Source of the DNA: a virus
Strand: one strand, 5' to 3'
Length of the DNA stretch: 31,971 bases
IMG/VR virus record: IMGVR_UViG_3300021373_000717
Span: 1-31,971 of that record
Part shown: positions 9,276-26,239 of the stretch, piece after piece
Layout: each line of letters opens with the position of its first letter
Position numbering within the stretch: the stretch's first letter is position 1
Position numbers and translations under genes: made by a program
The notes under the pieces: generated by a model
What the model was told of the DNA's origin: nothing
Seen by the model: the letters and a program-made list of their open reading frames with translations, nothing else
Database searches by the model: none

Positions 9276-9301
9276 TGCCCTCCTTGTGGGGGCATTTTTT
9301 T
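9276..9301 (+). terminator. Rho-independent terminator of the rightward arm
   Basis: TGCCCTC (9276-9282) pairs with GGGGGCA (9288-9294) with one G-T wobble, a 5-base loop CTTGT, and seven Ts at 9295-9301. This ends the + strand replication operon. The T-run reaches into the stop codon of the opposing - strand gene (9300-9302). Read on the - strand the hairpin lacks a U tract, so leftward transcripts are probably not stopped here. Confidence 0.85.
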
Positions 9302-12300
9302 ACAAGAAATAGTCGTCTTCGCCCAGAAGCTCTAAGCGGCTACGTAGTACTTTCTCGTACCTACGCTGACTCACTGTAATACCACCCAACATTCTAGCCA
9401 TTTCACTGGTGATTCTATGCTGTCGGAGTGATCTAGCTTTGGTGTCTCCGGTGATCCTGACTTCAGGGTTTCGCCTGTTAAATTCGTTTATTTCCTGATC
9501 TACATCACGGACACCTTCAAAGTCACCGACTCTGTAAGCCATGTACCTTTGACGGAGAAGCTTTGTTTTTCTTTGGTTAATGTTTCTGTCTTTACGTTTT
9601 TCTACACCACTTATCTCTAAAGACTTGGTGTAACCCGCTGGGGCAAATCCAAATAATTGTCCGGCCAACACTAAAGGACTTAAATCTTGCGTGATTGGAT
9701 CACCTCGTAATGTAGTCGCACCGCCGTCTCTAGCGTAACGGAAACTCTTTGCAAAACCAGATATAGCGGAGGGAGCTACTGATTCAAATGCTCGATCAGC
9801 GTAACCCTCTTCAAGCAATCTTTTAGCTCCAAACATCCTAGAGAATATACCCCCAAGAGGGCCACCTCCTAGGTCAAGAACAAGTTCAGCAAAACTTTCT
9901 GTTTCTTTATTGGGTAGAGTTCTGTGGATAAGATTAGTCATACCTATACGTGGGGCAATATCTAGTCCAAACATAGCATTCAATACGCCAGAGTACGGCC
10001 CTTCACCAAGTTGTCTAGCTACTATAGTCTCTGCATCGTCATCTTCATCATCTAACAAGAACAGGTTTGCTAACTCGGTGGCAACCCCATACAAAGGCAA
10101 ACCCTGCGCCCCTGCAAGCAACCCAGACATACCGAACAACCCAACTATCTGTTTCTTAGCTTCGCTCTTTTCATCTTTGTTGAGAGGGCTTCTACGAAAG
10201 GCAAGTCGGGCCATTTTCATTTGCAGATACGCCATAGAGATACCAAATCGCTTATACATAAGCAGGACACTGCCTATATCGCCTTGCGCTATCTTAGGTG
10301 CGGTATCTATCAAAGCACCACTGTTAGTATGCTCTATGTCGAGCATGACTTGGTTTATTATTTCTGTTCGTTCTTCGTCTGTTAAAGTATCACCACGCCC
10401 TGCTTTCTTGTTGTCGGCTATCTTCTTATCTACTGCCAGTTTATACGCAGCTATTGCAGTAACTTGTCTGTTAAGACGCTCACCTTGATGAAACATAAAC
10501 CCAGATACAGCGTTAACAGTGGTTTGTATTCTGTCAAACTTGTTACCAGTAGGATTATCTACGTCTATCATATCCCCTACTGTCGAAGCGTTTGCAGCCC
10601 CTCTGTCATCTAACGCTCTTACAAGCTGCCCCAGACCGGGGTACTTTTCAGTTACTTCGTCGGGTAAATTATCAGTATTCAGATTGGTAAGGTTAGGGCC
10701 ATCAAACTTAGTCTCTCCTTCTCCGATACCTTCAAACGTATCTGCTTTTCTCCTCATGCCTGTACCCATGTACAGCTTAGTAGCATCGAACAACGCTTTC
10801 ATAGTATTGCGGTAGCCGTATTTACCCGCCAAGAAAGGCAGTACGACAATCGGGAGAATAAAAGAGTTAACCAATGCGGAAGACAAATTAAGCCCCAGAG
10901 TATACATAAACCCAAAGCCTTTAAGTCGTCGCGCCCACGTACCAACTTGTGGGTTTTTAGCAAACTTTATGTAGCCTTTCGCCTGTTCAGATACTTGATC
11001 GGCAAACTCATAACTTTCGGAACCCACCAATTTATTCTTTGCGAGTTCTATCGCGTTCTCTCTATCGTTAAGAGGTACATCAAACTTTAAGTTATCTACT
11101 TGCCCCATGAACGCTGGCATACGCTCACTAAACACTTCTATTGCGTCAATCTCTGCGCCGTATACATCCTTTCTTTTTCTAAAAGAACTTTCCAAAGCAC
11201 GTTCAGGTAGGGCATTTAGCATGGCGTCTTGTACGATAGTGCTTATCGCGCTACCAGCAGCTTGTACGTTTGCCACTATAGCGTCAGCTTCCTCTTGGCT
11301 CTTACCTTCTGCTAAAGCATCTTGTTTGGCTTTCTCTGCCGCAGCATAGCGCCTACTTAAAATATCTGCATACAACTTGTTAGCCCAACGTATGTCTACG
11401 CTTGTTGCTTCTGTTTTAGCGCCAGTGGGTCGAGTAGCAACAAGAGGTTCTAACGCAGTTTCAAACTCTGCATCTTGTATTTCTTGTGCAGTAGGTTGTC
11501 TTCCCTCTGCGTTAGCGCGTGCAACAACTTCGGCTCTACCGCGCTCCCTTGCTTCTACTATGGTGCTTTCTTTGCTTGTTAATAAGTCTTGTCTGAGTTG
11601 AGGGTCAGTCCTCAAAGCTTGTATGTATTCGTCTCGCTGCTTTCTAGTTGTAAAAGCAACTTTATACTGCTCGACACCTTTAGTTAATTTGTCAAACCCT
11701 TGATGGTTAACCCAAAAATCACCTTTTCTAAACAAAGGAAAGTACGGTTCAATAGATTCTTTGTTAAGTAGGTCAAGAAGAATCTTGTCTTTGAAATCTT
11801 TCTTTATTGCTTTTTCTTGTTCTGAATTGCCCGGTACTTTGTCTATTCGTTTTAGCAACGTCGAGCGTAGTTCGGAATATGCAGTAGCGTAGGCGTTCTT
11901 TAAAGTTACGTAAGCTCGCTGTGCTTCAGGGTCTAACTTGTTCCACTCAGCAAAAACTAAATCAAAATCTTCCAACTTACCGTCACTAGGATTAGTAATT
12001 GCTACTTTAGTATTTTTATCAACGTCTTTAAGTTTCTTTACTTCTGCATCCCTTGCTTCTTTTGACATAGGGGCAGAACGAAACTCACTACCGTCTTCTC
12101 TTACGTAGCTGTAACGAAAACCTTCGTAATACTGCCTAGCAGTGAATCCCTTAGACTTACCTGTAACAAGATCAATATTAGCTGAAGGGTCTACACGTTT
12201 AAGCGTGCTCTCCATGATGATAAGATTAAACAACGCACGTTGTTTTGGCCCAAGTTTTTCAAATACCTTGTTAAGTTCTTTGGTAGTGTCTTTTACTTTA

Positions 12301-15300
12301 CGTAAGTATTTTTGCCGCGAGCCGTTCTTTAACTGAATTACTTTAAAAAGTTCATCAAGCTGTTTACCCAAATCCTGCATAAGCGGGTTCTGGTGATCTT
12401 TTATAAAATCAGCTATAGAGTTTAAAGGCAGTATGTTTAAGAACCACTGGTTCTTTTGATTAACAAAATCTGGTTGATCTATAAGCTTGTTGTACAGACT
12501 TATATCTGCTTTGGGTACAGCCCCACTTGCGTAAATACCTATTGTTTCATTGAGTATTTTGCGCTCGTTCTCTGCGGTCACTTCCATATTCAAACGCGCA
12601 GCATCTCTGAACTGCGGTGCGGGCGACATCATTTCACCCACTAAGTTGTCTACCGCGTTCTTTGCAGACCCTACTTTCTTGAAAGGTAAACCTCTAAACC
12701 TACGTATCAAGTTTTCTACTATATTTTTGAGACGCTCCAGCACTCCCAGCTTATTACCTTTTGTATCCATAGAGGCAAGTTTTGCTTGGAACTCAGGGTT
12801 AGAGAAAGCCTCTGCTATGAACTCATCTAGGTTGGTTGCACCGTATGCCGTATCTAGTCTGTCCCTTACGTCATCAAAAAGTTGCTGTAACTGTCTGGTT
12901 ACGGGGCTACTCTTGTTTGCTATTTCGTGTGAAGTAACAGCGTGCAGTGCTTCGTGTAGCAGTACATGAGTGGTTGGCACCATGTCTGCGTTTAGTATGA
13001 TGGTATTAGTTTTAGGGTCAAACGTGCCAGCCAGCAATTTGCCTTCGGGCGACATTAGGTTGGTTTCAAACGTAATTTTTGTGTTGCCGTCTTTTATCAA
13101 TGCGGCACTAATTGCCTTAGCGGTTTTAGCAACATCTTTACTGGTAGTAGTCGCTGCCAGTAGGTCTAACCCTTCAGTTAGCTTACCGTCTTTTAGCAGT
13201 TGGCCTATTTCTGGGTCTAGCGCCATAGTCGTAGACGCTATAGATACAGCCAGTAAGTTTTTACGTCCTTTGTTGTTTAAGGTGTCTATAACCTTATTTA
13301 ATTTTACTTTTGAATCCTTAGATAGATTTGCCACAGCCCAGTCTACATCAGCCCTAGCACCATCTTTTCCATCTACAAAATCTTTTGCTGTCTTCTGTAT
13401 CCAAGCATCAACACTAATGTCAGTGTCTGCTCTTGTTTCTATTTTATTCTCGTCAGATGCAAACTCCCCCTCACGCGCAGCCATTTGCTCATCGCCCATA
13501 GCATCAGGTTCTAAGTTTTCATCAAGGGCGTTGTTAGTAAGTGGTGCCTCACCGCCCGCTTTCGCCTGTATTCGTCGTTCTAGGTCTGCTTTCTTTTCTT
13601 CAAAATCAAGTTGTTTTTCAAAGTCATCATAAGAGTCAGTTGTTTCTTTTGTTTCTGCTGTTAATTCTTGTGCTGCTGGTTGTGCTGCTGTTGTTTCTTG
13701 TGCTGCTGTTGTTTCTTGTGCTGCTGGTTGTGCTGCTGGTTGTGCTGCTGGTTGTCTACGCGTGCCCCTACTCTGCGCTTCGGGTGTTATACCACCGCGT
13801 GGGCCAACCATAGGAACTTGTTCTTGAGGCTGCGATTCAGAACGCTCTAGCGCACGCTGTTCTGTAGCTATTTGTTGAGCAAGGTCTGCGCCTATAACAG
13901 CATCTTGTGCAGCTTGATCTCTAGGTTCCATACCGGGCATTTCTAATTGCGCTTGCCCTTCTACTGGAACTCCTCTTGTTAGTTCTGCTTGTAGGGCCGC
14001 CTGCATAGCAGTAGGAGTGCCTTCGGGTAGACTAGCAGCACGTTCTACTGCGGCCTGTTGTGCAGCTTCTTGTTTTGCTTTTAGCGTTGCTTTTAGTTCA
14101 GCTTGTCTTTGCTGTTCAGCCCGTTGCTCAAACGCTATATCTTGCTCTTCGCGTTTTATGCTTTCCTCTACGGCTTCTTCTATTGTTAATTGCTCAGGTG
14201 CCGCTCCACGAGCAATTTGCTCCATCTCAGGAGCTACTTCTAATGCTTCTTGCTGCGCGGTTTCTCTTTCTACAGCTTCAAAAGTAGGGCGAAACGCAGG
14301 TTCGTTAAGTAAAGCTACAGCACTTCTTTTGTTTTCAGGCTTAATGCGAGGGTTATTGGCATATTCAACTACAGCCCCTACTGCTGTCCTAGCTTGTGTA
14401 GGATCAGCTAAATCTAAACCTGCAATCGTTTTACCTAATTTTGTACTAGCCCCAATATTAAACGCCGCTAAATCTTTTGCGCTGTACGTTGTTTTGGGTT
14501 CTCCAGTTGGTAAGAGTGTCTGGGGTAGGTCTAACTGTGGGGCTTCTCTGCGTAACCTATCTGCTTCTGCAAAAAGAGCTTCTTGTTGCGCTATGGCTTC
14601 TGCATCTACATCAGAGGGTGTTTCAGCCAGTTCCGCTAGATCAATCGTAGTATCTTGTGTAGCTTCTTCCGTAGGTGCTTCTACAAACGTAGTGTCTTTA
14701 AGGCGTTCTGCCTCTTTTCTAGCTGCTGCTCTGCCAGTTACACTGCCGATTGGGCCAAGAGTACCGCCCACTGTAGCGGCGAGATATGCAGCCTCACCGT
14801 ATTCTGCTAAGGCTTCTTCAGACAATACGTCCAGACCAGCCTGTGCTCTTTCCAGAACTTGTTGTGCTACTTCTGTGGGCATTTCCGCAGCGGCACCAGT
14901 GGCAACACCACGGCCTACAGTACGAGTCAAACTACGGTTTGCGGTTGTGATTAACTTCTCGGCGTCTTTAGCGGCAGTTCCAACTTCGTCAAGTTGTTTG
15001 CCTATTACTTTACCTACGACACCTCTGCCCAGTATAAAATACTGCCCTATCAGTTCCGGCACGGCCTGCAATGCCGCAGTACCTACTGCTTTACCCGTGT
15101 CAATATCAACAGGACGTCCTTCAGCTATGTCTGTCTCTGCCTGACGTTCAATGTTGTACCCAGCAAATTGCGGTATGAGAGAGGCAAGTGCGCCAAGACC
15201 GCCCCCTATAGCAGTGCCGACAAAAGGCACAAAAGAACCTAAAGCGGCACCTGTGGCGGCACCTGCTGCTGTAGCACCTAATTGAGCGCCTTGCCCCGCT

Positions 15301-15686
15301 ACTGCTCGTGGGATCTGGCTTAGCGCGGTTCCAACGGTAGGTAGAATACCTTCGGCGTCTCGTACAGCTTGGAAAGACGGGCCTTCACCATACTTTTGAG
15401 CGATGTCTTCACTACGCTCTAGTGCAGCAAGAGCTGCTGCTTCATCATCACCTAGCACGGCTCCAGCAGTAGTGCGGAAAGCTGACGCGAGTGATTCCGC
15501 GCCACGCATAAGCTCCCCACCGATAGTGCTCTCAGGTGGAGGCGGGGGTTGAGTTACGTCTATACCTTCTTGGCGTCTGTAATAAGCACGTTCAGCTAAT
15601 GTTGCACCTTGCTCTCTGGTGGTGCCTTTTGGGACGTAGAAGTCAAACTTTTCCCCAGATGGGGCTGTGCCTTTTACGATGGGCAT
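9300..15686 (-). CDS. Giant multi-domain virion/ejection protein with metallopeptidase-like site
   Basis: 2128 residues, the last gene of the leftward arm; probably an internal virion protein delivered with the DNA. The N-terminus has a short domain ending YVPKGTTREQ, of a kind common at the start of such phage proteins. A Gly/Ala-rich hydrophobic stretch (about 129-175) and Glu/Gln/Ala-rich helical segments follow. A low-complexity Ala-Gln-Pro/Glu-Thr-Thr repeat lies around residues 645-673. A zincin-type motif LLHEALHAVTSHE (HEALH at 911-915, nt 12942-12956) is followed by EFIAEAF about 45 residues on, which can supply the third ligand. The second half is mostly helical, with a hydrophobic segment near 1580-1620 and a YKRFG motif near 1810. 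This resembles the 'large polyvalent protein' families. It starts 3 bases after the previous stop with a weak ribosome site. Confidence 0.75.
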   Translation of the reverse strand: MPIVKGTAPSGEKFDFYVPKGTTREQGATLAERAYYRRQEGIDVTQPPPPPESTIGGELMRGAESLASAFRTTAGAVLGDDEAAALAALERSEDIAQKYGEGPSFQAVRDAEGILPTVGTALSQIPRAVAGQGAQLGATAAGAATGAALGSFVPFVGTAIGGGLGALASLIPQFAGYNIERQAETDIAEGRPVDIDTGKAVGTAALQAVPELIGQYFILGRGVVGKVIGKQLDEVGTAAKDAEKLITTANRSLTRTVGRGVATGAAAEMPTEVAQQVLERAQAGLDVLSEEALAEYGEAAYLAATVGGTLGPIGSVTGRAAARKEAERLKDTTFVEAPTEEATQDTTIDLAELAETPSDVDAEAIAQQEALFAEADRLRREAPQLDLPQTLLPTGEPKTTYSAKDLAAFNIGASTKLGKTIAGLDLADPTQARTAVGAVVEYANNPRIKPENKRSAVALLNEPAFRPTFEAVERETAQQEALEVAPEMEQIARGAAPEQLTIEEAVEESIKREEQDIAFEQRAEQQRQAELKATLKAKQEAAQQAAVERAASLPEGTPTAMQAALQAELTRGVPVEGQAQLEMPGMEPRDQAAQDAVIGADLAQQIATEQRALERSESQPQEQVPMVGPRGGITPEAQSRGTRRQPAAQPAAQPAAQETTAAQETTAAQPAAQELTAETKETTDSYDDFEKQLDFEEKKADLERRIQAKAGGEAPLTNNALDENLEPDAMGDEQMAAREGEFASDENKIETRADTDISVDAWIQKTAKDFVDGKDGARADVDWAVANLSKDSKVKLNKVIDTLNNKGRKNLLAVSIASTTMALDPEIGQLLKDGKLTEGLDLLAATTTSKDVAKTAKAISAALIKDGNTKITFETNLMSPEGKLLAGTFDPKTNTIILNADMVPTTHVLLHEALHAVTSHEIANKSSPVTRQLQQLFDDVRDRLDTAYGATNLDEFIAEAFSNPEFQAKLASMDTKGNKLGVLERLKNIVENLIRRFRGLPFKKVGSAKNAVDNLVGEMMSPAPQFRDAARLNMEVTAENERKILNETIGIYASGAVPKADISLYNKLIDQPDFVNQKNQWFLNILPLNSIADFIKDHQNPLMQDLGKQLDELFKVIQLKNGSRQKYLRKVKDTTKELNKVFEKLGPKQRALFNLIIMESTLKRVDPSANIDLVTGKSKGFTARQYYEGFRYSYVREDGSEFRSAPMSKEARDAEVKKLKDVDKNTKVAITNPSDGKLEDFDLVFAEWNKLDPEAQRAYVTLKNAYATAYSELRSTLLKRIDKVPGNSEQEKAIKKDFKDKILLDLLNKESIEPYFPLFRKGDFWVNHQGFDKLTKGVEQYKVAFTTRKQRDEYIQALRTDPQLRQDLLTSKESTIVEARERGRAEVVARANAEGRQPTAQEIQDAEFETALEPLVATRPTGAKTEATSVDIRWANKLYADILSRRYAAAEKAKQDALAEGKSQEEADAIVANVQAAGSAISTIVQDAMLNALPERALESSFRKRKDVYGAEIDAIEVFSERMPAFMGQVDNLKFDVPLNDRENAIELAKNKLVGSESYEFADQVSEQAKGYIKFAKNPQVGTWARRLKGFGFMYTLGLNLSSALVNSFILPIVVLPFLAGKYGYRNTMKALFDATKLYMGTGMRRKADTFEGIGEGETKFDGPNLTNLNTDNLPDEVTEKYPGLGQLVRALDDRGAANASTVGDMIDVDNPTGNKFDRIQTTVNAVSGFMFHQGERLNRQVTAIAAYKLAVDKKIADNKKAGRGDTLTDEERTEIINQVMLDIEHTNSGALIDTAPKIAQGDIGSVLLMYKRFGISMAYLQMKMARLAFRRSPLNKDEKSEAKKQIVGLFGMSGLLAGAQGLPLYGVATELANLFLLDDEDDDAETIVARQLGEGPYSGVLNAMFGLDIAPRIGMTNLIHRTLPNKETESFAELVLDLGGGPLGGIFSRMFGAKRLLEEGYADRAFESVAPSAISGFAKSFRYARDGGATTLRGDPITQDLSPLVLAGQLFGFAPAGYTKSLEISGVEKRKDRNINQRKTKLLRQRYMAYRVGDFEGVRDVDQEINEFNRRNPEVRITGDTKARSLRQHRITSEMARMLGGITVSQRRYEKVLRSRLELLGEDDYFL
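13669..13752 (-). repeat. Ala-Gln-Pro / Glu-Thr-Thr coding repeat (copy 1)
   Basis: Tandem 12-base units TGTGCTGCTGGT (+ strand), interspersed with two 18-base units containing TGTTTCT, encode AAQP and ETTAAQ repeats in the giant protein. A 44-base stretch (13707-13750) is identical to 18859-18902 in another gene. Confidence 0.9.
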
Positions 15687-15689
15687 TTA

Positions 15690-17360
15690 TTATTCCGCGC
15701 CAGTTTCCGATATGTCAGTATCAAATGCACCTACTTCGCCTTGAGTTTGCCTTACTGCTTTCATTAGTTCATTTAACCTACTGTTTGTAGCTGCTCTCAT
15801 TTCTGCTGCTAACAAATCTGGATTATTGCCGTATTCAATCTGCAAATCCTGCATGTTCCTGTTGAATACCTCGTCTCTTCCGGTTACCAAATTATCCAAC
15901 ATAGATTCAGCAAGTTTTCTGTCGTCTTTTGCATAGTTTTCTATTGCGGTTTGTTGAGCCTCAAACAACATTCGTCTATTGTCCGCGTTTAGCTTAGCCA
16001 GAGCCGCATTGTAGTCTTGTTCTATACCATACCGTTGGCTAGCGATCTTGGCAGCTTCTATAGCTTCTTTAGAGGCTAGAGCTTCGCGGCGTTGGTCTTC
16101 ACCCATTAGACCTCTGAGTCCACCACCTAACGCACCTGCGGTACTTGTTTGTCCAGCACCACCAGCTAGGAAAGCCTGTAGGCGACCAATATCTACGTTG
16201 TCAAATATGCCTTTCTTTTCTTCTGGTTCTGCACGATCTTGAGGTCGCACGGGGCCAGTTTGTAGCTGTAACAATACATCCCCCAAACTAGGGTCAGTAA
16301 TAAATTCTTGTTCGTCCTTTGGTTGGACAGGTGTTGGAGCTACGGCCACTTCTTCTGCCATCACTTCTGGTTCAGGTTTGCGATTTCTACCCATCTGACC
16401 AAGACTGTCAGTTACAGGATCACCTCCTGCGCCTATACCACCTGCAAGCACTCGTCCTCTACCAATGCGTCTAGGCTCTTCATCAACTACATTGCTTTGA
16501 CCTCGCCTACGATTTCGAGCAGTTCTGCGCCCTTCTACACCACCCCCATTGTCAAAAAATGTTATTTCAGGTGGCAAAGTATTAGCAGGGTCTACCTCAT
16601 CTATCATGTCTTGAGATCGCGCTAACATCTTTATGTAGTTAGCTGCTCTGCGTGCTTCCTCTTCTTTGGCTTCTTGCTGCTTTCTGCCTACCATTTGTAG
16701 GTATTGCAGACCGCCCATAGCACTACCGTCACCTTGATTGACCGCTTCACGTGCTTTAGGAAACATTTGAGAGAACTTCTCGGCGCGAGTAGGGGCGCCT
16801 GATACAGCCGCTCTTGGTGCTCTATCATCAGGGCGAGGCATAGGAGGTGGAGTTTCTACTCGTCTTCCTATATCTCTTTGATTAAGGGCTTCCATAACTT
16901 CTCTATTATATTGATCCGCCTCTCTGCTTGTGCCCCCAAACTCTATAGACCTAATGTAATTCATTATTCTGTCTAAGAGGCCACCATCTTTGTACCCCAC
17001 AATACCGCCATCCGCCATACGGATGTTGGGTGCAGGTTGGCTGGGTACTCCCATAGCTCGGCGCTGCATGGCCTGTGAGTCACGAGCAGCTTTCATCTGT
17101 ACTCCCGGCATTACTGAACGCATCATGTCATTCTTGGTAACTTGTGCGTTAGACATGTCCAGTTGATCTCTAACTGTACCTGCCGGGGCTTGTGTAGCCG
17201 CTTGCATAGCATTTCGTGCTGACGCGTAATCATTGCTCACTTTTTGAGCAACAAGTAAGTCCATAAGACTTTTGCTTTGCGCGTACCTTTGCTGTGCTGC
17301 TTGAGGATTACCACCAGCAGCCATTTCTCTCATTCTTAATTCTGTGTCTATGCCAGCCAT
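15690..17360 (-). CDS. Putative internal virion / DNA-ejection protein
   Basis: 556 residues, rich in Ala, Gln, Arg and Met, with long predicted helices at both ends and a Pro/Arg/Gly-rich disordered centre. Near residues 112-126 it has the motif MADGGIVGYKDGG, seen in related form in two neighbouring genes. A Gly-rich stretch (LAGGAGQTSTAGALGGG) precedes a C-terminal helical region. No enzyme motif is visible. AGGGG just upstream of ATG 17360 is a good ribosome site. The gene sits between a 273-residue protein of the same style and the giant HExxH protein, matching the internal-virion block of podovirus-like genomes. The exact role is unknown. Confidence 0.65.
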   Translation of the reverse strand: MAGIDTELRMREMAAGGNPQAAQQRYAQSKSLMDLLVAQKVSNDYASARNAMQAATQAPAGTVRDQLDMSNAQVTKNDMMRSVMPGVQMKAARDSQAMQRRAMGVPSQPAPNIRMADGGIVGYKDGGLLDRIMNYIRSIEFGGTSREADQYNREVMEALNQRDIGRRVETPPPMPRPDDRAPRAAVSGAPTRAEKFSQMFPKAREAVNQGDGSAMGGLQYLQMVGRKQQEAKEEEARRAANYIKMLARSQDMIDEVDPANTLPPEITFFDNGGGVEGRRTARNRRRGQSNVVDEEPRRIGRGRVLAGGIGAGGDPVTDSLGQMGRNRKPEPEVMAEEVAVAPTPVQPKDEQEFITDPSLGDVLLQLQTGPVRPQDRAEPEEKKGIFDNVDIGRLQAFLAGGAGQTSTAGALGGGLRGLMGEDQRREALASKEAIEAAKIASQRYGIEQDYNAALAKLNADNRRMLFEAQQTAIENYAKDDRKLAESMLDNLVTGRDEVFNRNMQDLQIEYGNNPDLLAAEMRAATNSRLNELMKAVRQTQGEVGAFDTDISETGAE

Positions 17361-17369
17361 TGTTAACCC

Positions 17370-18191
17370 CTATTTAAACAGACCCATAGTATCAAGTAGC
17401 CCTAAAATACCACCCGCACCACTCATAAACTGGCTTGTACTGCTGGGTTCAGCATACTGATAGCTTTGTGTAGATATTGGCAGTCCCTGTAGTAATGACT
17501 GCATGTACTGTACTTGCTTGTAAGGGTAGTCTCGTTCTTCTCTAAACTGCCCTATGTCTGCCTGTACGCCCTGTTGCTCTATGGCACGCTGCTGTGCACC
17601 GCCTGTTTGCTGTGCGGCTAACGCACGAAGGCCGTAGTCTTGCTCACGACCAAATAAGTCAGCCGCCTTGTCATAGGCTTGTGAGTAACCTTGACCTGTT
17701 ATACCTGCCATGCGATCTAAAAGACCACGTTGCAGCTCTGCTTCGGCCACACCTTGGCGTGAACCACCATAAGCACCCGCTTTAGCATACTGGCTTTGTA
17801 ATGCTTGCTGTGCAATATCGGCTTGTCTTTGCGCTGCGGCATACTGCGGTTCAAGCGCAGCCTGTAAATATGGGTTCATGTACGCCTGTACTGGACTAGT
17901 CGCTCCTTCCGCAAACGGCTGTGGTGTTTCACCACCCGTAATCTGTTCCGGGCTAAGCGGCTGGTAGGCTGCACCTGTAAAAGACCCTGCGGCACTAGCA
18001 CCGGGCATAGCCAAAGAACCAAGCCCGCTAAATGCTTGTTGCTGTAGTTGTGACTCTCCGGCAGAGAGCGGCCCCATATACGCCTGATAGGGCATAGAGG
18101 CAAGAGCTTGCCCCCGCCCCAACATTTCAGTGACATATGGCCCTGCATAGGGGGATAAAGAACTAGATTGGCCTAACATTCCATTACTCAT
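17370..18191 (-). CDS. Putative virion protein, Gln/Ala/Tyr-rich
   Basis: 273 residues. The N-terminus has SPYAGPYVTEMLGRGQAL then PYQAYMGPLSAGE. The middle has VQAYMNPYLQAAL followed by a long Gln/Ala helix with GAYGGSRQ. The C-terminus has the hydrophobic GAGGILGLLDTMGLF. I recognise this arrangement from conserved structural genes of marine phages next to internal-virion proteins, but know no demonstrated function. A role in the ejected core or a membrane-penetrating conduit would fit the helical Gln/Ala-rich composition and hydrophobic tail; this is inference. The ribosome site is AGGAAAAC before ATG 18191. The gene is separated by 9-10 bases from each neighbour. Confidence 0.65.
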   Translation of the reverse strand: MSNGMLGQSSSLSPYAGPYVTEMLGRGQALASMPYQAYMGPLSAGESQLQQQAFSGLGSLAMPGASAAGSFTGAAYQPLSPEQITGGETPQPFAEGATSPVQAYMNPYLQAALEPQYAAAQRQADIAQQALQSQYAKAGAYGGSRQGVAEAELQRGLLDRMAGITGQGYSQAYDKAADLFGREQDYGLRALAAQQTGGAQQRAIEQQGVQADIGQFREERDYPYKQVQYMQSLLQGLPISTQSYQYAEPSSTSQFMSGAGGILGLLDTMGLFK

Positions 18192-18201
18192 TTATGTTTT
18201 C

Positions 18202-19395
18202 CTATGCTGGCATCATCTTGGTAGGGTTGATCTCTGGGCCTTGTTTGGTGGTGCCAGTGCGTTTATTTCGCACCCTATCCATCATTGAATATAGTTGTTG
18301 TGCTCCTGCATCAGAGTTGCCGTTGCCTAAATGACTAACCACATCAGCAGGTATTACAAATTCACCGTCGCTCAGAGCAGCGGGTTGTGTTCCGTCTATC
18401 GTTGCAGGTACCAGATCAGCCATACCGTCAGTAGGGCCACCTAGGTAGTAGCCTTGGGCTATACCACCTGCGGCATATCCGGATACACCCGCTCTACGCA
18501 AATAATCTGAGACTTCATCTACTGTAATGTTTTGATACTCAGGATACGCGGGGTTATTGCCGAAGTAACTTACGATTTCTTCAGGGCTTGTCCTGCCTTG
18601 AGCCGCCAGTTCAACTATAAGCCCCGGCACGCCCCCGGTATAACCTAAAGATTCCACAACTTGTTCAGGAGTTTGATAGCCACCACGTAAGAGTTCTTCA
18701 ATTACATCTCCCGTGGTTACACCAAAACGACCCGCAGCCATAGGGATAGTTGTCTCTCCAGCAGATATAGCTTGAGCAGCTATATCTCGTTCTTGCTGCG
18801 TGTAATCCCCGTCTACATCAATAAGTTGATACGGTGTTTTAGCTGCTGGTTGTGCTGTTGTTGTTTCTTGTGCTGCTGGTTGTGCTGCTGGTTGTGCTGC
18901 TGATTGTGCTGCTGATTGTGCTGCTGGTTGCGCTGCTGGTTGTGCTGCTGGTTGTGCTGCTGGTTGTGCTGCTGGTTGTGCTGCTGGTTGTGCTGCTGGT
19001 GCACCGGCGATCCCGCCAGCAGTTGCAGGTTGTTCTTGCTGTAGTGCTGCAAGCCCCAATAGTTCTTGACCCGCAGCTTCATAGGCTTGCTGTTGTTCTA
19101 GGGCCGCTTGGTTCATAGCAGCTATCTCTGCACCGCCTAATATGGCGTTGTCGGGGCCACGCGTAAAATCTACGTCCGTGAAATACCGTCTACCGGCTTC
19201 GCCGGGCCGTCTGCCTGTAGAATCAAAAGCGCTGGGTACAAGCGTGCGAGTAGCTGTATAATCAGGAATACCGCCCGTATAGCCTTGTGTACCGCTAGTT
19301 TGCCCTTTTCCACCCGTTGCCCCCAGTATTCCACCGAGTCCGGCACCTAGAATGCCGAGTGTTTCAGGACTTACTTCTTTCCCAAATAATTTCAT
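18202..19395 (-). CDS. Putative virion/ejection protein with AAQP repeats and conserved C-terminal module
   Basis: About 397 residues. I chose ATG 19395 rather than the upstream in-frame ATG at 19431, because GAGGCGGG directly precedes it and it lies one base after the upstream stop. The N-terminus has a Gly-rich hydrophobic segment (LGILGAGLGGILGATGG). An Ala-Gln-Pro repeat of eleven tetrapeptides follows. The C-terminus has YAAGGIAQGYYLGGPTDGM, then LSDGEFVIPADVVSHLGNG and YSMMDRVR. This C-terminal module recurs in marine phage genomes, to my knowledge without an assigned function. The repeat is probably a flexible linker between a membrane-active N-terminus and the C-terminal module (inference). 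Confidence 0.7.
   Translation of the reverse strand: MKLFGKEVSPETLGILGAGLGGILGATGGKGQTSGTQGYTGGIPDYTATRTLVPSAFDSTGRRPGEAGRRYFTDVDFTRGPDNAILGGAEIAAMNQAALEQQQAYEAAGQELLGLAALQQEQPATAGGIAGAPAAQPAAQPAAQPAAQPAAQPAAQPAAQSAAQSAAQPAAQPAAQETTTAQPAAKTPYQLIDVDGDYTQQERDIAAQAISAGETTIPMAAGRFGVTTGDVIEELLRGGYQTPEQVVESLGYTGGVPGLIVELAAQGRTSPEEIVSYFGNNPAYPEYQNITVDEVSDYLRRAGVSGYAAGGIAQGYYLGGPTDGMADLVPATIDGTQPAALSDGEFVIPADVVSHLGNGNSDAGAQQLYSMMDRVRNKRTGTTKQGPEINPTKMMPA
18842..19000 (-). repeat. Ala-Gln-Pro coding repeat (copy 2)
   Basis: About eleven 12-base units of TGTGCTGCTGGT type (+ strand), two with a G-to-A change giving Ser instead of Pro, plus one Glu-Thr-Thr-Thr unit at the 3' end of the coding repeat. 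It shares 44 identical bases with the repeat at 13707-13750. Confidence 0.9.
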
Positions 19396-19396
19396 C

Positions 19397-20866
19397 TTAC
19401 CCGCCTCGTAATATACGAAGTATTCTCTCAAAATCGTCTGTATTGCCTATCATACCACCCTCTGCGGCTCTTACTATGTCTTCTTCCTCTTCTTCTGTAG
19501 CTTGAAAAGGTTGTTCTAAGCCTCTTGCAAAGTCATATAGATAGTCGATGTCTACACTAGGGCCGGGGCCACCAGATACTGTACGAATACCGCCTGATGG
19601 GGCTGTAGTGCCGCCCCCTCCGCCTCCACCGCCTCCACCAGCAGCCGCAACGCTAGTTTTGGTTGGCTCTGGCAAAGAAGTTCTGGTGGAATCGGTTCGT
19701 TCGTTCGCTAATATTTCCTCTATTACTGCTTCTGGTAGAGAGGTTCTTTCTACTGCTACCTGTGCTTCTGGTAGTGAAACTCTGTCTACTGGTACTTGTG
19801 CTTCTGGTAGTGAAACTCTGTCTACTGGTACTTGTGCTTCTGGTAGTGAAACTCTGTCTACTGGTGGTAATTGGTCTGAGGTAGTAGGTATATCTAAAGT
19901 GTCTGGATCACCACCACTATCGACAGTATTATTCCCACTGCTATTGCTATCTCCATTAGGGTCTCCTAGTTTGTTTGGGTCATCCGATGGGGGAACTTTA
20001 GTGGTATCCACCCCCACAATAGTGTCTTTATCTTTATCTTTGTCTGTGGGTGCAACAGTGTTTACTAAAGTGCCAGTGGTAGGATTGGTAAATATGTCGC
20101 CTATCGCACCAGTAACATCTCCCCCACTAGGGACATTTAAGTCACCCGTTTCAGTAATTATAGCTTCGTCGCCAAAAACACCTGCTATAGCTTCATCTAA
20201 CGCAGGTATGCCTGTGGTTGCAGCAATAATAGTTCCGTCTTTTTCACCTACTTTTAGTGGTGTTTGAGTTCCTGCGTCACTGTATGACCCAGTAACAACG
20301 GGTTGCCCCGCTAGAATAGACGGTATGTTATAGAGCACTTGGTTAAAAGAAGGTATGCCCGCAGCAGCAGCGCCTGCACTTGGTGCGGCACCCACAGTTG
20401 TAACCCCACCTAAAATTTGATTCATCAGTGTTTCGGGTTTGCCCCCTACCGCTTCGTAGTTGGCACGGGCTACCTGCAATGCGTCTTGAGCATCGCGCTG
20501 ACCTTCAAAAAATGCTTCAAGCGACTCATCTGTGAATTTACCTGAATCATCCGTAAACCTTTCTGAGTCTATTGCTAAACCTTGGTTATACGCTTTTAAA
20601 TAAGCTACTGCTTCTGCAAATTTCTTTTCCGCACTTAAAAACTTCTTATCTTCGGCAATAGCCGCTTGATCTTCTTCTGAGAGCAAAGTCACGGCATCAG
20701 GAATATCTATAGCGCCTATGTCTATACCAGAAGGATCAATAAAATCCATACCAGAAAAATCAGGCTGTATATCCCGAAGAACCATTAAATCACCAAACGG
20801 GTCAAACCCCGGCTGTGGTTGTTGAGCATATATTTCGGGTATTTCTGCTGGTGCTGGTCTACTCAT
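19397..20866 (-). CDS. Putative virion protein with SLPEAQ repeats and poly-Gly
   Basis: 489 residues, acidic and low-complexity. The N-terminal part is Pro/Asp-rich. Residues about 65-155 include a charged helical region. The middle is Thr/Asp/Gly-rich and probably disordered. Three copies of a 12-residue unit containing VDRVSLPEAQ, plus degenerate ones, are followed by a run of ten glycines. The end carries EEEEE and then AAEGGMIGNTDDFERILRILRGG, a motif resembling MADGGIVG and YAAGGIAQG in the two downstream genes. No enzymatic motif is visible. The shared short motif and position suggest it belongs to the same internal-virion set. The stop lies one base before the next start. Confidence 0.65.
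   Translation of the reverse strand: MSRPAPAEIPEIYAQQPQPGFDPFGDLMVLRDIQPDFSGMDFIDPSGIDIGAIDIPDAVTLLSEEDQAAIAEDKKFLSAEKKFAEAVAYLKAYNQGLAIDSERFTDDSGKFTDESLEAFFEGQRDAQDALQVARANYEAVGGKPETLMNQILGGVTTVGAAPSAGAAAAGIPSFNQVLYNIPSILAGQPVVTGSYSDAGTQTPLKVGEKDGTIIAATTGIPALDEAIAGVFGDEAIITETGDLNVPSGGDVTGAIGDIFTNPTTGTLVNTVAPTDKDKDKDTIVGVDTTKVPPSDDPNKLGDPNGDSNSSGNNTVDSGGDPDTLDIPTTSDQLPPVDRVSLPEAQVPVDRVSLPEAQVPVDRVSLPEAQVAVERTSLPEAVIEEILANERTDSTRTSLPEPTKTSVAAAGGGGGGGGGGTTAPSGGIRTVSGGPGPSVDIDYLYDFARGLEQPFQATEEEEEDIVRAAEGGMIGNTDDFERILRILRGG
19749..19862 (-). repeat. 36-base tandem repeat coding SLPEAQ units
   Basis: Three units at 19749-19784, 19785-19820 and 19821-19856 plus the start of a fourth. The second and third are identical and the first differs at two positions. 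Each encodes 12 residues containing SLPEAQ. A diverged relative (ERTSLPEA) flanks them in the protein. Confidence 0.9.
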
Positions 20867-20873
20867 ATCTCAC

Positions 20874-21527
20874 CTACGGCGTCGGCAGTGTTTCAGGCAG
20901 TGCTGAAACAAGAACTACGGTTACTAGAGTAGACGGTACGGCAGGGCGGGGACTTGAAGCCGCCATATAATCTATTGTTATGCCTGTATCGTCTGTTGCC
21001 CACATAAGTTCTATGTACTGCCCTGCTGTTATATCTATGGTAAAACTGTATTCAAAATCATCTACGCCGCCAGAACCTGCTATGACGTGCATCCTGCCAG
21101 TGTTCGCTATGTCTACTCCACTTCTTCGTACCCAGAAGGACAACTCCTTAGAGTTAGCGTTGGTACTAGTTAACTCTACCGAAAGCTCAAAGTTGTAAAC
21201 CCCTGAATGTATTGGAGTTATTCTTGTCTTTGGGGTGCCTGTTACACTTATGGCTTCCCCTAGATACGTATTCTCAAACTGCAACGCATACGCTGTATCA
21301 GGCGAAGCAGCGTTCTGATCTACCGTAGAAAAGAACTTACCGTTCGGGGACTCTATAAACTGTCCGCCATATTCCCCGGTTAACAAGTTTACATTATTAG
21401 CTAACCTATTGAAAAACAAACGCAAAATATTGTTCAGGTCATCTAAGTATGTCCGCAGAATATTCGTTTCAGGTGGTATCGGCAGGGCGGGAGCTTCTAC
21501 CTTATTTATACTATCCCGCGATGCCAC
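20874..21527 (-). CDS. Jelly-roll-like virion protein
   Basis: 217 residues, beginning at GTG 21527, which overlaps the upstream stop as TAGTG; GGAGGGG lies just before it. The N-terminal about 55 residues are helical (YLDDLNNILRLFFNRLANNVN). The rest is beta-rich with PNGKFFSTVDQNA, HSGVYNFELSVEL, SFWVRRSGVDIANT and GQYIELMW, the pattern of C1q/TNF-like jelly-roll domains often found in phage head or tail decoration proteins. An N-terminal trimerising helix plus a jelly roll would suit a small fibre or spike. It is placed between the tail/connector protein and the internal-virion genes. Function is inferred from fold pattern. Confidence 0.65.
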   Translation of the reverse strand: MASRDSINKVEAPALPIPPETNILRTYLDDLNNILRLFFNRLANNVNLLTGEYGGQFIESPNGKFFSTVDQNAASPDTAYALQFENTYLGEAISVTGTPKTRITPIHSGVYNFELSVELTSTNANSKELSFWVRRSGVDIANTGRMHVIAGSGGVDDFEYSFTIDITAGQYIELMWATDDTGITIDYMAASSPRPAVPSTLVTVVLVSALPETLPTP

Positions 21528-23416
21528 TAGCCCCTCCTACCGTCAGGCCGCATATCCATCCTAGGTGCGCCTAGTTTCCACGTTACTCCTGCTGCTGTAG
21601 ACTCAATCTTAATCGACATCTGCCTACCCCGTACCCGTATAAAGACCTGCCCGGTAAACTCCTCTACAGGCACTGTGGCTGTTCTAGTAACAGTAGCGTT
21701 GCTGTTTCCACCCACAGAAGCTGGGTTATACCGCCCAGAACCCGAGTCTTTCAAAGGGTTTAGAGTCATCGTAGCTGCTGGAGCACCAGTTGTAGAACCC
21801 TCAAAGGTCATGTCTGGCAACATCTTGTTAACCAGCATAAACCGATCCCCGTCATCCAGATCAAACTGCGTCGAGGTTATACTAGCCGGTATGGCCGCAG
21901 GGACGCCTGTCTCGTTGTCGTCCACGCCTTTTTCATGGTTGACTAGTTTGTTGGTAAAAGTAGCAGCTATAGGAAAGTCACGTAGGTCAGAGTCAAGCCA
22001 TGCAGATCGTGCCAGATTACCGTAGTACCAGATGTTTTGTACGTAGTTATACACCACGTAGCGGTCATTCTGAGTAGCGCCCGCAGAACAATAAAACCAC
22101 CATATTTCGTCAAACTGCTCGTTGGAGCCGCAAATTACTTGGTCAGCTTGGCCTTGGTTAAAGTCATCAAATATATAGCTACGCAACTCGCAAGGTAGTG
22201 TCTTAACAGTACCATCGTAGTAGTAAAACTTGTTTATGCCCATCCAGTAGGCAATGTTGTTTGAGTACACAGCCGAATTCGGCCCAGCTATGGTAATGTT
22301 TGAGCCAAGGAGCTGCGCTCCCCATACCTCTGGAGCACCTAGATACTGTAGGCCGTACAGGGCTGCATCTGACCAGACCAACACTTCTTGCCGTGCTTGG
22401 ATAGCGTCTACGATTTCTGTACCTTCTGACAGACGTAAACTACCTGCTTGGTTAGTAGCCGCAGGTGTCCAGTTAGCTGCGTCTTCTTGGTCTGACCATC
22501 GGATAAGCATAGGGTCTATGCCAGCACTACCAATCTCGTTTGCCCCAAAACAGAACGCAAAGCGGAATATGTCAGATACAAACGCTAGATTTACTACAGT
22601 AGGTACATCGGACGCACCTCCCAAAGAACTTACAGCAACAGCACGTGTATTAACCCCGTTACTTGCGTCCCAGTAGTATGGTGCTCCGCCCCTGTGGGCA
22701 AAGAATAAGTCCTCACCGAAGTTAGACTGACTCCAGATACGCATAGGCGCCAATGTTGTACCACCTGTACCCCACGTCCCAGTACCCCAACGCCCTGCAC
22801 CCCAACCAGTAAACGGTACCTCAATCTCGTTACCCGTATTGATTTGGTAGGTGCCTACTGTGCTGCCGCCACTGTTACCTGTATCTGACCCGTTAGCCAG
22901 CACAGTATTGCCAGAAGTGTCCTTGGCCTCTACTGTGTAGGAATTGCCGTTAATTATGGTAGCTATTTGGTACTCTTGATTGAGCACAGCCGCAGTAATA
23001 TTGCCGCCTAGAGAAGCAGCTCCAGAGAAAGTTACAAAGTCATTCTGGAGGGCGCCATGAGAAGCATCGGTTACAGTAAGAGTGGCATCGCCGTTTACGG
23101 CTGCAAATGTAACATCGCCCGCTGCTGTGGTTGCTCTAATAGGGGTAACGTCAAAGTAAGCCCCACCTCGCTCAATGTAGTATTTGAGGTGAGTACCTAC
23201 AGAAACAAGATTCTGAAGACTAAGAGTAGCCCAGTTGAATAGCGAACGCGCTACACCTAGGTAAGTATTAGCAGAGAGCTGCTCCCACCCGCCTATTTTC
23301 TGGGGTAGGCCACGTCTGAAGCGCACCTTATCAGTCTCGTACCACTGACCTTCGGCGGCATACCGGGTAGTTTCTCTGTTTACTCCCGGTTTGAATTGTA
23401 ATTTTCTAACTGCCAT
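21527..23416 (-). CDS. Large tail/connector structural protein, possible nozzle or stabilisation protein
   Basis: 629 residues, beta-rich throughout, with no enzyme motif. The N-terminus FKPGVNRETTRYAAEGQWY and RRGLPQKIGGWEQL is a pattern I know from phage structural proteins placed near the tail tube or head-tail connector. Repeated Trp/Gly-rich strands (GWGAGRWGTGTWGTGG, RIWSQSNFGEDLFFAHRGG, IWWFYCSAG) suggest a beta-propeller-like body comparable to T7 gp12 or P22 gp10. An Ig-like insert may lie around residues 100-190. GAGG precedes ATG 23416 with good spacing. The lysozyme gene ends 7 bases upstream of it. The structural class is fairly sure; the exact tail role is inferred. Confidence 0.6.
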   Translation of the reverse strand: MAVRKLQFKPGVNRETTRYAAEGQWYETDKVRFRRGLPQKIGGWEQLSANTYLGVARSLFNWATLSLQNLVSVGTHLKYYIERGGAYFDVTPIRATTAAGDVTFAAVNGDATLTVTDASHGALQNDFVTFSGAASLGGNITAAVLNQEYQIATIINGNSYTVEAKDTSGNTVLANGSDTGNSGGSTVGTYQINTGNEIEVPFTGWGAGRWGTGTWGTGGTTLAPMRIWSQSNFGEDLFFAHRGGAPYYWDASNGVNTRAVAVSSLGGASDVPTVVNLAFVSDIFRFAFCFGANEIGSAGIDPMLIRWSDQEDAANWTPAATNQAGSLRLSEGTEIVDAIQARQEVLVWSDAALYGLQYLGAPEVWGAQLLGSNITIAGPNSAVYSNNIAYWMGINKFYYYDGTVKTLPCELRSYIFDDFNQGQADQVICGSNEQFDEIWWFYCSAGATQNDRYVVYNYVQNIWYYGNLARSAWLDSDLRDFPIAATFTNKLVNHEKGVDDNETGVPAAIPASITSTQFDLDDGDRFMLVNKMLPDMTFEGSTTGAPAATMTLNPLKDSGSGRYNPASVGGNSNATVTRTATVPVEEFTGQVFIRVRGRQMSIKIESTAAGVTWKLGAPRMDMRPDGRRG

Positions 23417-25263: not shown

Positions 25264-25494
25264 CTAGGTTTCGGATGACTTTCCCTCAGTATCCTCCTCG
25301 ACGATCTCGTCGATGGTTTCACATACATCAGGAACAGCTACGCCTGTAGTTACTTCAGTAGCCACACGCCCCACAGCCCGAATGCCTTTATAGACACCAG
25401 AGCAATACAGGTCTTTATTAGCGATCATATCCTCAGACACCGTGCATCCGGTGAATACAAATAAACTACTCAGGATTAGGGAAATCGATTTCAT
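25264..25494 (-). CDS. Small predicted lipoprotein
   Basis: 76 residues. The start MKSISLILSSLFVF is a short signal peptide followed by FTGC, so Cys17 would be lipidated (lipobox -3 Phe is unusual but tolerated). Thr at +2 predicts outer-membrane sorting. The mature part is about 60 residues with two further Cys (YCSGVY and DVCETI) that could form a disulfide, and an acidic end. The gene overlaps the lipase gene by 29 bases, with AGAGG upstream of ATG 25494. Possible roles are an outer-membrane spanin subunit, a superinfection-exclusion lipoprotein, or a protein guarding against the neighbouring lipase. None can be chosen from sequence alone. Confidence 0.7.
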   Translation of the reverse strand: MKSISLILSSLFVFTGCTVSEDMIANKDLYCSGVYKGIRAVGRVATEVTTGVAVPDVCETIDEIVEEDTEGKSSET

Positions 25495-26239
25495 CTTCTA
25501 TCCTCTTCAGCTCTCTTAGTTCGCCTTTGGTTAGGGGGACAACCTTCTTGGCTTCTCGCTCCTGCCCGTCAAGGAACAGCTTCAGCCTTTCTTTATAGCC
25601 GTCCATCATGTGGTCTGCTATACGGTCTTTCAGATCGCCCCTGTCAGCAACTCTGGTGTCTTTGCTTGGGTTTATATAGTCAGGGCCGGTATTGCTGAAA
25701 TACAGCATAGTCTGTGAGCTTGAAGGGCCGTAACAAAAGCGTGGGATTCTAGCCACCATATCGCTGCCCTGCACACAAGATATTTGGTTATCCAGCGTCA
25801 TTGGCTTTTTGAAGCCCTTGAAGAACACGTTTGGCTTACCGAAAGTAATTAAGTTTATATTGTCGTGCCTACCGTTCAACATAGAGGCAGATAGCTCTGC
25901 TAACGCACCACCAAGACTATGGCCGCAAATCAACGTGCGTTTCTTGGGGTCTATGTGTTTCTTAACTTCTTTCCAGACTGACTTATGCGCCATAGCAAAC
26001 CCGCCGTGACACAGCCTACCCGCATATGGCACGGGGACTACGAGCGCGTCTGTTAACCAATCCCTGCCCTGCTGTGTACCCCTGAAGGCTATTATGTCTA
26101 TGGTCTTACGCTTTGCCACATATACTGTAGTTGATGTCCACTTGCTCTCTATGTGAATAGCATCTACTTTGTTCCGCTTTTTGTAGGCGTTCATCGCCCA
26201 GCTACAAGCCATATTAAGCAGTACGGGATCGAGTTTCAT
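25466..26239 (-). CDS. Class 3 lipase (alpha/beta hydrolase)
   Basis: 257 residues; ester hydrolase of the lipase class 3 family (fungal-type). Visible features are the oxyanion-side IIAFRGTQQGRDWLTD (about 49-64), the nucleophile elbow GHSLGG with Ser108, a strand with ITFGKPNVF, the acid in VQGSDMVARIP (Asp160), and His210 in RIADHMMDGY. The Ser-Asp-His triad is therefore complete and activity is likely. No signal peptide is present, so it would act in the cytoplasm, be released at lysis, or be carried in the virion. It overlaps the upstream small membrane protein by ATGA and the downstream lipoprotein by 29 bases. A lipase in a phage lysis/tail region is uncommon. The substrate (phospholipid or host surface lipid) is unknown. 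Confidence 0.85.
   Translation of the reverse strand: MKLDPVLLNMACSWAMNAYKKRNKVDAIHIESKWTSTTVYVAKRKTIDIIAFRGTQQGRDWLTDALVVPVPYAGRLCHGGFAMAHKSVWKEVKKHIDPKKRTLICGHSLGGALAELSASMLNGRHDNINLITFGKPNVFFKGFKKPMTLDNQISCVQGSDMVARIPRFCYGPSSSQTMLYFSNTGPDYINPSKDTRVADRGDLKDRIADHMMDGYKERLKLFLDGQEREAKKVVPLTKGELRELKRIEDEIDFPNPE

What the first reader, a model, noticed from the sequence alone, without database searches (positions are those of the whole stretch)
12795..12960. Metallopeptidase-like HEALH site buried in a 2128-residue virion protein
LLHEALHAVTSHE followed about 45 residues later by EFIAEAF is the arrangement of a gluzincin-type zinc peptidase. The site lies in the middle of a giant protein with Gly/Ala-rich hydrophobic segments and a YKRFG motif typical of 'large polyvalent proteins'. 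Such proteins are proposed to enter the host with phage DNA, so this could be a protease acting on the protein itself or on host targets at the start of infection.
Basis: partly seen in the sequence, partly recalled or inferred. Interest (0 to 1): 0.55.

Follow-up and report, generated by a model that had tools for sequence, protein, structure and literature searches.

The report
Zinc peptidase in phage ejection-type protein
A giant protein of an uncultured phage carries a real, strictly conserved zinc-peptidase domain of a kind already described in phage proteins that are shot into bacteria; relatives of the same domain sit in proteins known to be packed inside virions, so it probably cuts proteins at the very start of infection.

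Summary
HEALH is residues 911-915 (nt 12942-12956, minus strand) and EFIAEAF is 955-961 of a 2128-residue protein. It is not chance: of 80 relatives found by the distant C-terminal YKRFG motif (best 80 of 426), 65 hold enough upstream sequence, 64 carry the domain, and every aligned copy keeps H911, E912, H915 and E955. The one exception has a different HExxxH metallopeptidase in the same slot. An AlphaFold2 model gives a zincin core; best structural matches are the C1 domain of N4 virion RNA polymerase, then lethal-factor-type and PPEP peptidases. Eighteen more distant relatives all keep HExxH and the first Glu, but only 3 the second: the third zinc ligand is probably E955, not E959. Relatives include virion proteins: phiKMV gp37, PhiM1 gp48, N4-type vRNAPs, phi14:2 g065. 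Pfam places the protein among large polyvalent proteins (LPD39). Iyer et al. 2017 already described this metallopeptidase class and proposed self-processing, so this is a new member of a known kind. Possibly new: the same domain in phiKMV/PhiM1 ejectosome proteins annotated as "endolysin". Substrate and catalysis are untested.

The parts
9300..15686 (-). Gene of the 2128-aa large polyvalent / ejection-type protein
   Evidence: LPD39 above Pfam cut-off; PHROG DarB-like 4.9e-41 and phrog_11358 5.1e-43 over the C-terminal half
12684..13217 (-). Metallopeptidase (zincin) domain, about residues 824-1001
   Evidence: AlphaFold2 model, ten-residue blocks pLDDT 76-97 here; structural matches cover model 84-261 = residues 824-1001
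12942..12956 (-). HEALH, residues 911-915: two His ligands and the general-base Glu
   Evidence: invariant in 65 of 65 aligned C-terminally found relatives and 18 of 18 distant ones
12843..12845 (-). Y948, aligned with a Tyr of lethal-factor-type peptidases
   Evidence: 65 of 65 in the close family; 6 of 18 distant homologues have Tyr at that spacing; catalytic role recalled from literature, not tested
12822..12824 (-). E955, predicted third zinc ligand
   Evidence: 65 of 65 and 18 of 18
12810..12812 (-). E959, conserved in the close family, probably second shell and not a ligand
   Evidence: 65 of 65 but 3 of 18 distant homologues; W, Y, Q, T or L in the rest
11826..12389 (-). LPD39, residues about 1100-1287
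   Evidence: Pfam PF18858, 32.9 bits, E 6.5e-08, cut-off 27
10242..10256 (-). YKRFG motif, residues 1811-1815, in the conserved helical C-terminal region
   Evidence: its pattern matched 457 stretches, 426 of them relatives
15147..15296 (-). Gly/Ala-rich hydrophobic stretch, residues 131-180, possible membrane segment
   Evidence: Composition A25 G24 percent for 130-180; hydropathy peak 153-171
13407..14699 (-). Low-complexity Ala/Glu/Gln-rich linker, residues 330-760, with PAAQ repeats
15690..17360 (-). 556-aa protein, possible gp15-like middle ejection protein (by position only)
   Evidence: Only weak family matches
17370..18191 (-). 273-aa DNA ejection protein
   Evidence: phrog_4287, E 4.3e-08
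21527..23416 (-). Virion structural protein upstream on the same strand
   Evidence: phrog_3287, E 4.1e-66

Best explanation
Residues about 824-1001 form a catalytically competent zincin peptidase (H911, H915 and E955 bind zinc; E912 is the base) inside a giant ejection-type polyvalent protein. The protein is made late, packed in the capsid, stays whole there, and is expelled into the cell with or before the DNA. The peptidase becomes active only after ejection, and cuts proteins at the entry site, most likely its own long linker and/or partner ejection proteins, so as to free the C-terminal module or to dismantle the entry channel. Shown here: domain, active-site constraint, homology to virion/ejection proteins. 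Inferred: packaging in this phage, ejection, timing, activity, substrate.
For: Active-site residues invariant in 65 of 65 aligned relatives found through another region, in a domain whose median top-residue fraction is 0.55; 18 of 18 in distant homologues. The one of 65 loci without the domain has an HExxxH metallopeptidase-like motif in the same slot, as expected if a peptidase is needed there. Homologues lie in virion proteins: phi14:2 g065 (MS/MS note in the record), phiKMV gp37 and PhiM1 gp48, schitovirus vRNAPs. Gene order small-middle-giant behind virion genes matches the gp14-gp15-gp16 order reviewed in PMC8954989 (passages). Against cleavage before ejection in relatives: N4 vRNAP is packaged unprocessed (PMC5512222 passages); recombinant N4 vRNAP showed no evidence of degradation (PMC12633501 passages).
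Against: No activity, zinc or cleavage has been shown for any phage member in the passages read. Phage P1 DdrB is processed before packaging (PMC5512222 passages), which favours earlier action. Zinc-site distances could not be measured because no coordinates are handed out. Sequence homology to phiKMV, PhiM1 or N4 proteins is confined to the peptidase domain.
Confidence: 0.5

Rival explanations
1. Host-directed effector: the injected peptidase cuts host proteins, for example defence or envelope proteins.
For: Closest solved relatives outside phages by profile and fold are peptidases of the lethal-factor and PPEP type; polyvalent proteins combine several effector enzymes (PMC5512222 passages), and relatives here carry ART-PolyVal (1 of 21), a pyrophosphatase domain, helicase and methyltransferase domains.
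Against: The domain is also in plain ejection-channel proteins of phiKMV type with no other Pfam domain, where a host effector is less obviously needed.
Confidence: 0.25
2. Pre-packaging autoprocessing, as proposed for P1 DdrB: the domain cuts the polyprotein before or during head filling.
For: Proposed for this class by Iyer et al. (PMC5512222 passages); long low-complexity linker before the domain; one relative, L128, has the peptidase and C-terminal parts in two overlapping frames.
Against: N4 vRNAP is packaged whole and showed no degradation when purified. L128 may be a sequencing frameshift.
Confidence: 0.15
3. Structural or non-proteolytic zinc site: the fold is kept for packing or assembly, or does other HExxH chemistry.
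For: The N4 CTD, which includes this domain, inhibits transcription allosterically, and the N4 preprint notes HExxH also occurs in other enzymes (PMC12633501 passages).
Against: Invariance of the general-base Glu and its survival in distant homologues is unusual for a purely structural site; HExxxH form in its place in L106.
Confidence: 0.1

Closest known systems
MPTase (zincin-like metallopeptidase) domains of polyvalent proteins and the C1 domain of N4 virion RNA polymerase
   Same: HExxH helix, Glu in a following helix, three-strand core; profile match 98.6% probability, E 1.2e-15 to seven schitovirus vRNAPs; top structural match 9pnt Z 7.5, rmsd 4.3, 170 residues; PHROG virion RNA polymerase E 2.8e-07
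   Different: No RNA polymerase match here; the C-terminal half is unrelated to vRNAP C2 by profile comparison (0.2% probability); keeps Y948 and E959 that most vRNAPs compared lack
phiKMV gp37 / PhiM1 gp48 internal virion (tetrameric ejection) proteins
   Same: Same domain at residues about 416-567 and 381-525 (95-96% probability; PDB entries of this type E 6.9e-09 and 8.7e-10); last and largest of a small-middle-giant ejection cassette
   Different: About 1300 aa, no detectable homology outside the domain; E959 is W or Q; annotated as endolysin-like
DarB-like / PLxRFG large polyvalent proteins (e.g. Serratia phage Parlo 081)
   Same: LPD39, C-terminal region (E 2.9e-88) and metallopeptidase (E 1.1e-12) all shared
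   Different: Parlo protein is 3764 aa with N-terminal SLT transglycosylase, helicase and methyltransferase domains that were not found here
Lethal-factor-type (M34, recalled) and PPEP zinc peptidases
   Same: Fold (Z about 6.4 and 5); profile E 9.5e-13 with HExxH, Tyr and the EF segment aligned
   Different: A phage protein, not a secreted toxin or enzyme; the window sequence itself is not listed for the Pfam ATLF model (1 of 21 relatives is, E 0.0036)

Membership tests
Polyvalent-protein MPTase (Iyer et al. 2017) | HEXXH on the first C-terminal helix | tested here: met
   HEALH lies in model helix 166-183 = residues 906-923
Polyvalent-protein MPTase (Iyer et al. 2017) | Glu ligand on a following helix | tested here: met
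   E955 near the start of model helix 213-222; 65 of 65 and 18 of 18 conserved; distance to the His pair not measurable here
Polyvalent-protein MPTase (Iyer et al. 2017) | Three-stranded sheet preceded by a helix | tested here: met
   H110-126, E130-134, E147-150, E155-159
Polyvalent-protein MPTase (Iyer et al. 2017) | Peptidase activity and zinc | not testable with these tools
   Needs protein
Large polyvalent protein | Large multidomain phage protein with LPD domains | tested here: met
   LPD39 above cut-off; C-terminal DarB-like match
Lethal factor family (Pfam ATLF) | Match to the family model | tested here: not met
   Window sequence not listed at E <= 10 (weak matches are not all listed) or 0.01; so resembles, not filed as member
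Podoviral gp16-type ejection protein | Last and largest gene of a three-gene ejection cassette behind tail genes | tested here: met
   273 aa (phrog_4287), 556 aa, 2128 aa in order; middle gene by position only
Podoviral gp16-type ejection protein | Homology of the region after the peptidase to phiKMV/PhiM1 proteins | tested here: not met
   hhalign 0.1-2.2% probability
Podoviral gp16-type ejection protein | Structural match to T7 core protein | tested here: inconclusive
   9jyy_I Z 7.6, rmsd 5.5, 209 residues, within the range common for helical models
Podoviral gp16-type ejection protein | Present in the virion and ejected | not testable with these tools
   Uncultured phage

The most novel reading that the evidence does not exclude
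One zinc-peptidase domain is a shared, catalytically constrained module of the giant ejected protein in four separate delivery systems: phiKMV-type T7-like ejectosomes, N4-type virion RNA polymerases, crassvirus RNA-polymerase cargo, and polyvalent-protein podophages. Proteolysis in the newly entered cell would then be a general step of phage entry, and the 'endolysin/exotransglycosidase-like' domain reported in the PhiM1 ejectosome would be a misnamed peptidase.
Probability: 0.45. Interest if true: 0.7.

Novelty: new member of a known kind. Interest (0 to 1): 0.42.

Why it matters
The class was named in 2017, but none of the passages read here reports a test of what the peptidase does. The homology to phiKMV gp37 and PhiM1 gp48 puts the domain into culturable phages whose ejection proteins have solved structures, so a long-standing guess (self-processing or attack on host proteins at entry) can be tested with one active-site change. 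It also questions the 'endolysin domain' label carried by phiKMV-type internal virion proteins.

Tried and rejected
Idea that the region after the peptidase (about 1,100 aa both here and in N4 vRNAP) is the same C2 module: rejected at sequence-profile level (hhalign 0.2% against vRNAP C2, 3.8% against crassvirus, 1.0% for a reversed control). Foldseek of the domain against PDB gave nothing at E <= 0.001 (best 0.094); the structural claim rests on VIA-align Z 5-7.5, which alone is middling, together with the sequence profiles. The profile of the C-terminal half found no solved structure at E <= 1. NCBIfam gave no match for the window domain. tblastn of the domain found nothing in plasmids and the genome-contig scan confirmed no relative. 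Itty13's 630-aa protein, without the domain, lies at a record end and was not counted as a loss. Y948 as a universal catalytic residue: rejected outside the close family (6 of 18).

Bias notes: DEFIAEAF was one of the search seeds, so its conservation in L002-L036 is not evidence; HExxH was not a seed and is kept in 34 of 35 loci, the 35th (L026) beginning after it. In the first conservation count rows without HExxH were left out, which dropped L026 only. The 80 loci include duplicates and contigs already seen; the domain profile was built from part of the set. In one search my first HExxH pattern missed overlapping matches; one search repeats the count by alignment. The 18 distant homologues were hits of tblastn or HMM searches chosen by me to spread over groups (not all hits), and the EF segment in each was picked by eye and then checked by script.

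Full report
Observation. The window is a virus record of 31,971 bases with replication-type genes on the plus strand up to 9205 and late genes on the minus strand. The last late gene, 9300-15686, encodes 2128 residues. HExxH turned up in 4 of 2000 shuffles of the protein.

Conservation. A search seeded on the domain found 35 loci; HExxH, not a seed, is present in 34 and lies outside the contig in one. To remove seed bias I searched with the C-terminal alignment A2, whose only pattern was the YKRFG-type motif: 426 relatives, best 80 kept. Of the 80, 65 hold at least 350 residues upstream; 64 of these match the domain profile; with L135 (shorter upstream part) that makes 65 aligned copies, and all 65 keep H911, E912, H915, Y948, E955 and E959, while the median domain column has its top residue in 55%. 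The exception, L106, has HEATGH in the same place, with a weak profile match (77%); Iyer et al. describe an HEXXXH variant of these peptidases (PMC5512222, passages read). L128 has the domain in the adjoining, overlapping frame.

Distant homologues. tblastn of the domain found crassviruses, Rhizobium phages and N4-like vRNAPs among 21 phage records. Adding schitovirus vRNAPs and internal virion proteins, 18 of the 18 I examined keep HExxH and the first Glu of the EF segment, and 3 of 18 keep the second Glu. That favours E955 as the third ligand. Y948 has a counterpart in 6 of 18. In the profile alignment to lethal-factor entries the HExxH, the Tyr and the EF segment line up; by the chain numbering the first Glu falls on residue 735, which I recall as that enzyme's third zinc ligand.

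Structure. AlphaFold2 on 21 sequences gave mean pLDDT 74.6, with the peptidase core between 76 and 97 by ten-residue block. Against solved structures, VIA-align put N4 vRNAP C1 first (9pnt Z 7.5, 9pnr 7.0), then lethal factor (6.4) and PPEPs (about 5). Foldseek against predicted viral proteins gave 18 matches at E <= 0.001, among them the phi14:2 structural protein and internal protein D of a Bordetella phage.

Setting. The protein carries LPD39 and a DarB-like C-terminal half shared over most of its length with Parlo 081 and a Rhizobium phage protein. Parlo 081 and Limnohabitans phage YIMV22061 carry an N-terminal SLT transglycosylase together with this peptidase. Upstream of the gene are a 556-aa gene, a DNA ejection protein, and virion genes, the order described for podoviral gp14-gp15-gp16 (PMC8954989, passages; the main text of that review has no occurrence of protease, metallo, peptidase, zinc or HExxH).

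Ejectosome link. The domain profile matches PhiM1 gp48 (8vb2) and an internal virion protein entry (9sfn) at E 8.7e-10 and 6.9e-09; the latter stretch is that of phiKMV-type gp37. The PhiM1 paper names TEP 268-528 an endolysin/exotransglycosidase-like domain and its main text has no occurrence of metallo, protease or peptidase (PMC11440229, passages). Pfam finds no family at all in phiKMV gp37 or PhiM1 gp48 at E <= 0.1. I take that label to be a misnomer, with the reservation that a structural comparison of the PhiM1 domain itself was not run.

Mechanism. Conservation of the full catalytic set argues for catalysis. N4 vRNAP is packaged unprocessed (PMC5512222) and showed no degradation in vitro (PMC12633501), so activity after ejection is the better guess. 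Which proteins are cut is not known; self and partner ejection proteins are my first choice, host proteins second. P1 DdrB, processed before packaging, speaks for the earlier timing.

Known or new. Iyer et al. 2017 unified the N4 domain with lethal factor and proposed processing, and a later paper applied this to Pectobacterium N4-like phages (PMC8472413, passages). Searches for a peptidase in internal virion proteins (listings only) showed no title or abstract in the held library that reports it; subscription literature and preprints outside it are not covered.

Noticed in passing
L106:3422-9562, residue 954: Relative with an HExxxH metallopeptidase-like motif (HEATGH) in place of the HExxH domain, same C-terminal module.
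   Followed up: partly
L128:1-5042: Peptidase part and C-terminal part lie in two overlapping frames: split gene or frameshift error.
   Followed up: partly
L048 (phiKMV gp37) and L049 (PhiM1 gp48): Annotated 'internal virion protein with endolysin domain', yet no Pfam match at E <= 0.1; carries the peptidase domain.
   Followed up: yes
L038:5650-12573: Rhizobium phage protein with an inorganic pyrophosphatase domain (PF18823, E 2.2e-48) upstream of the peptidase.
   Followed up: no
window 25466-26239 (-): Class 3 lipase gene (Lipase_3, E 3.9e-19) in a phage, near the late genes.
   Followed up: no
window 26724-29261 and 29258-31798 (-): Two adjacent 845/846-aa proteins with similar repeats (VGTVSGTSISFG type), only weak or no PHROG matches; perhaps propeller-like receptor-binding proteins.
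   Followed up: no
window 18202-19431 (-) and 13668-13751 (-): PAAQ repeats occur both in a 409-aa late protein and in the linker of the giant protein.
   Followed up: no
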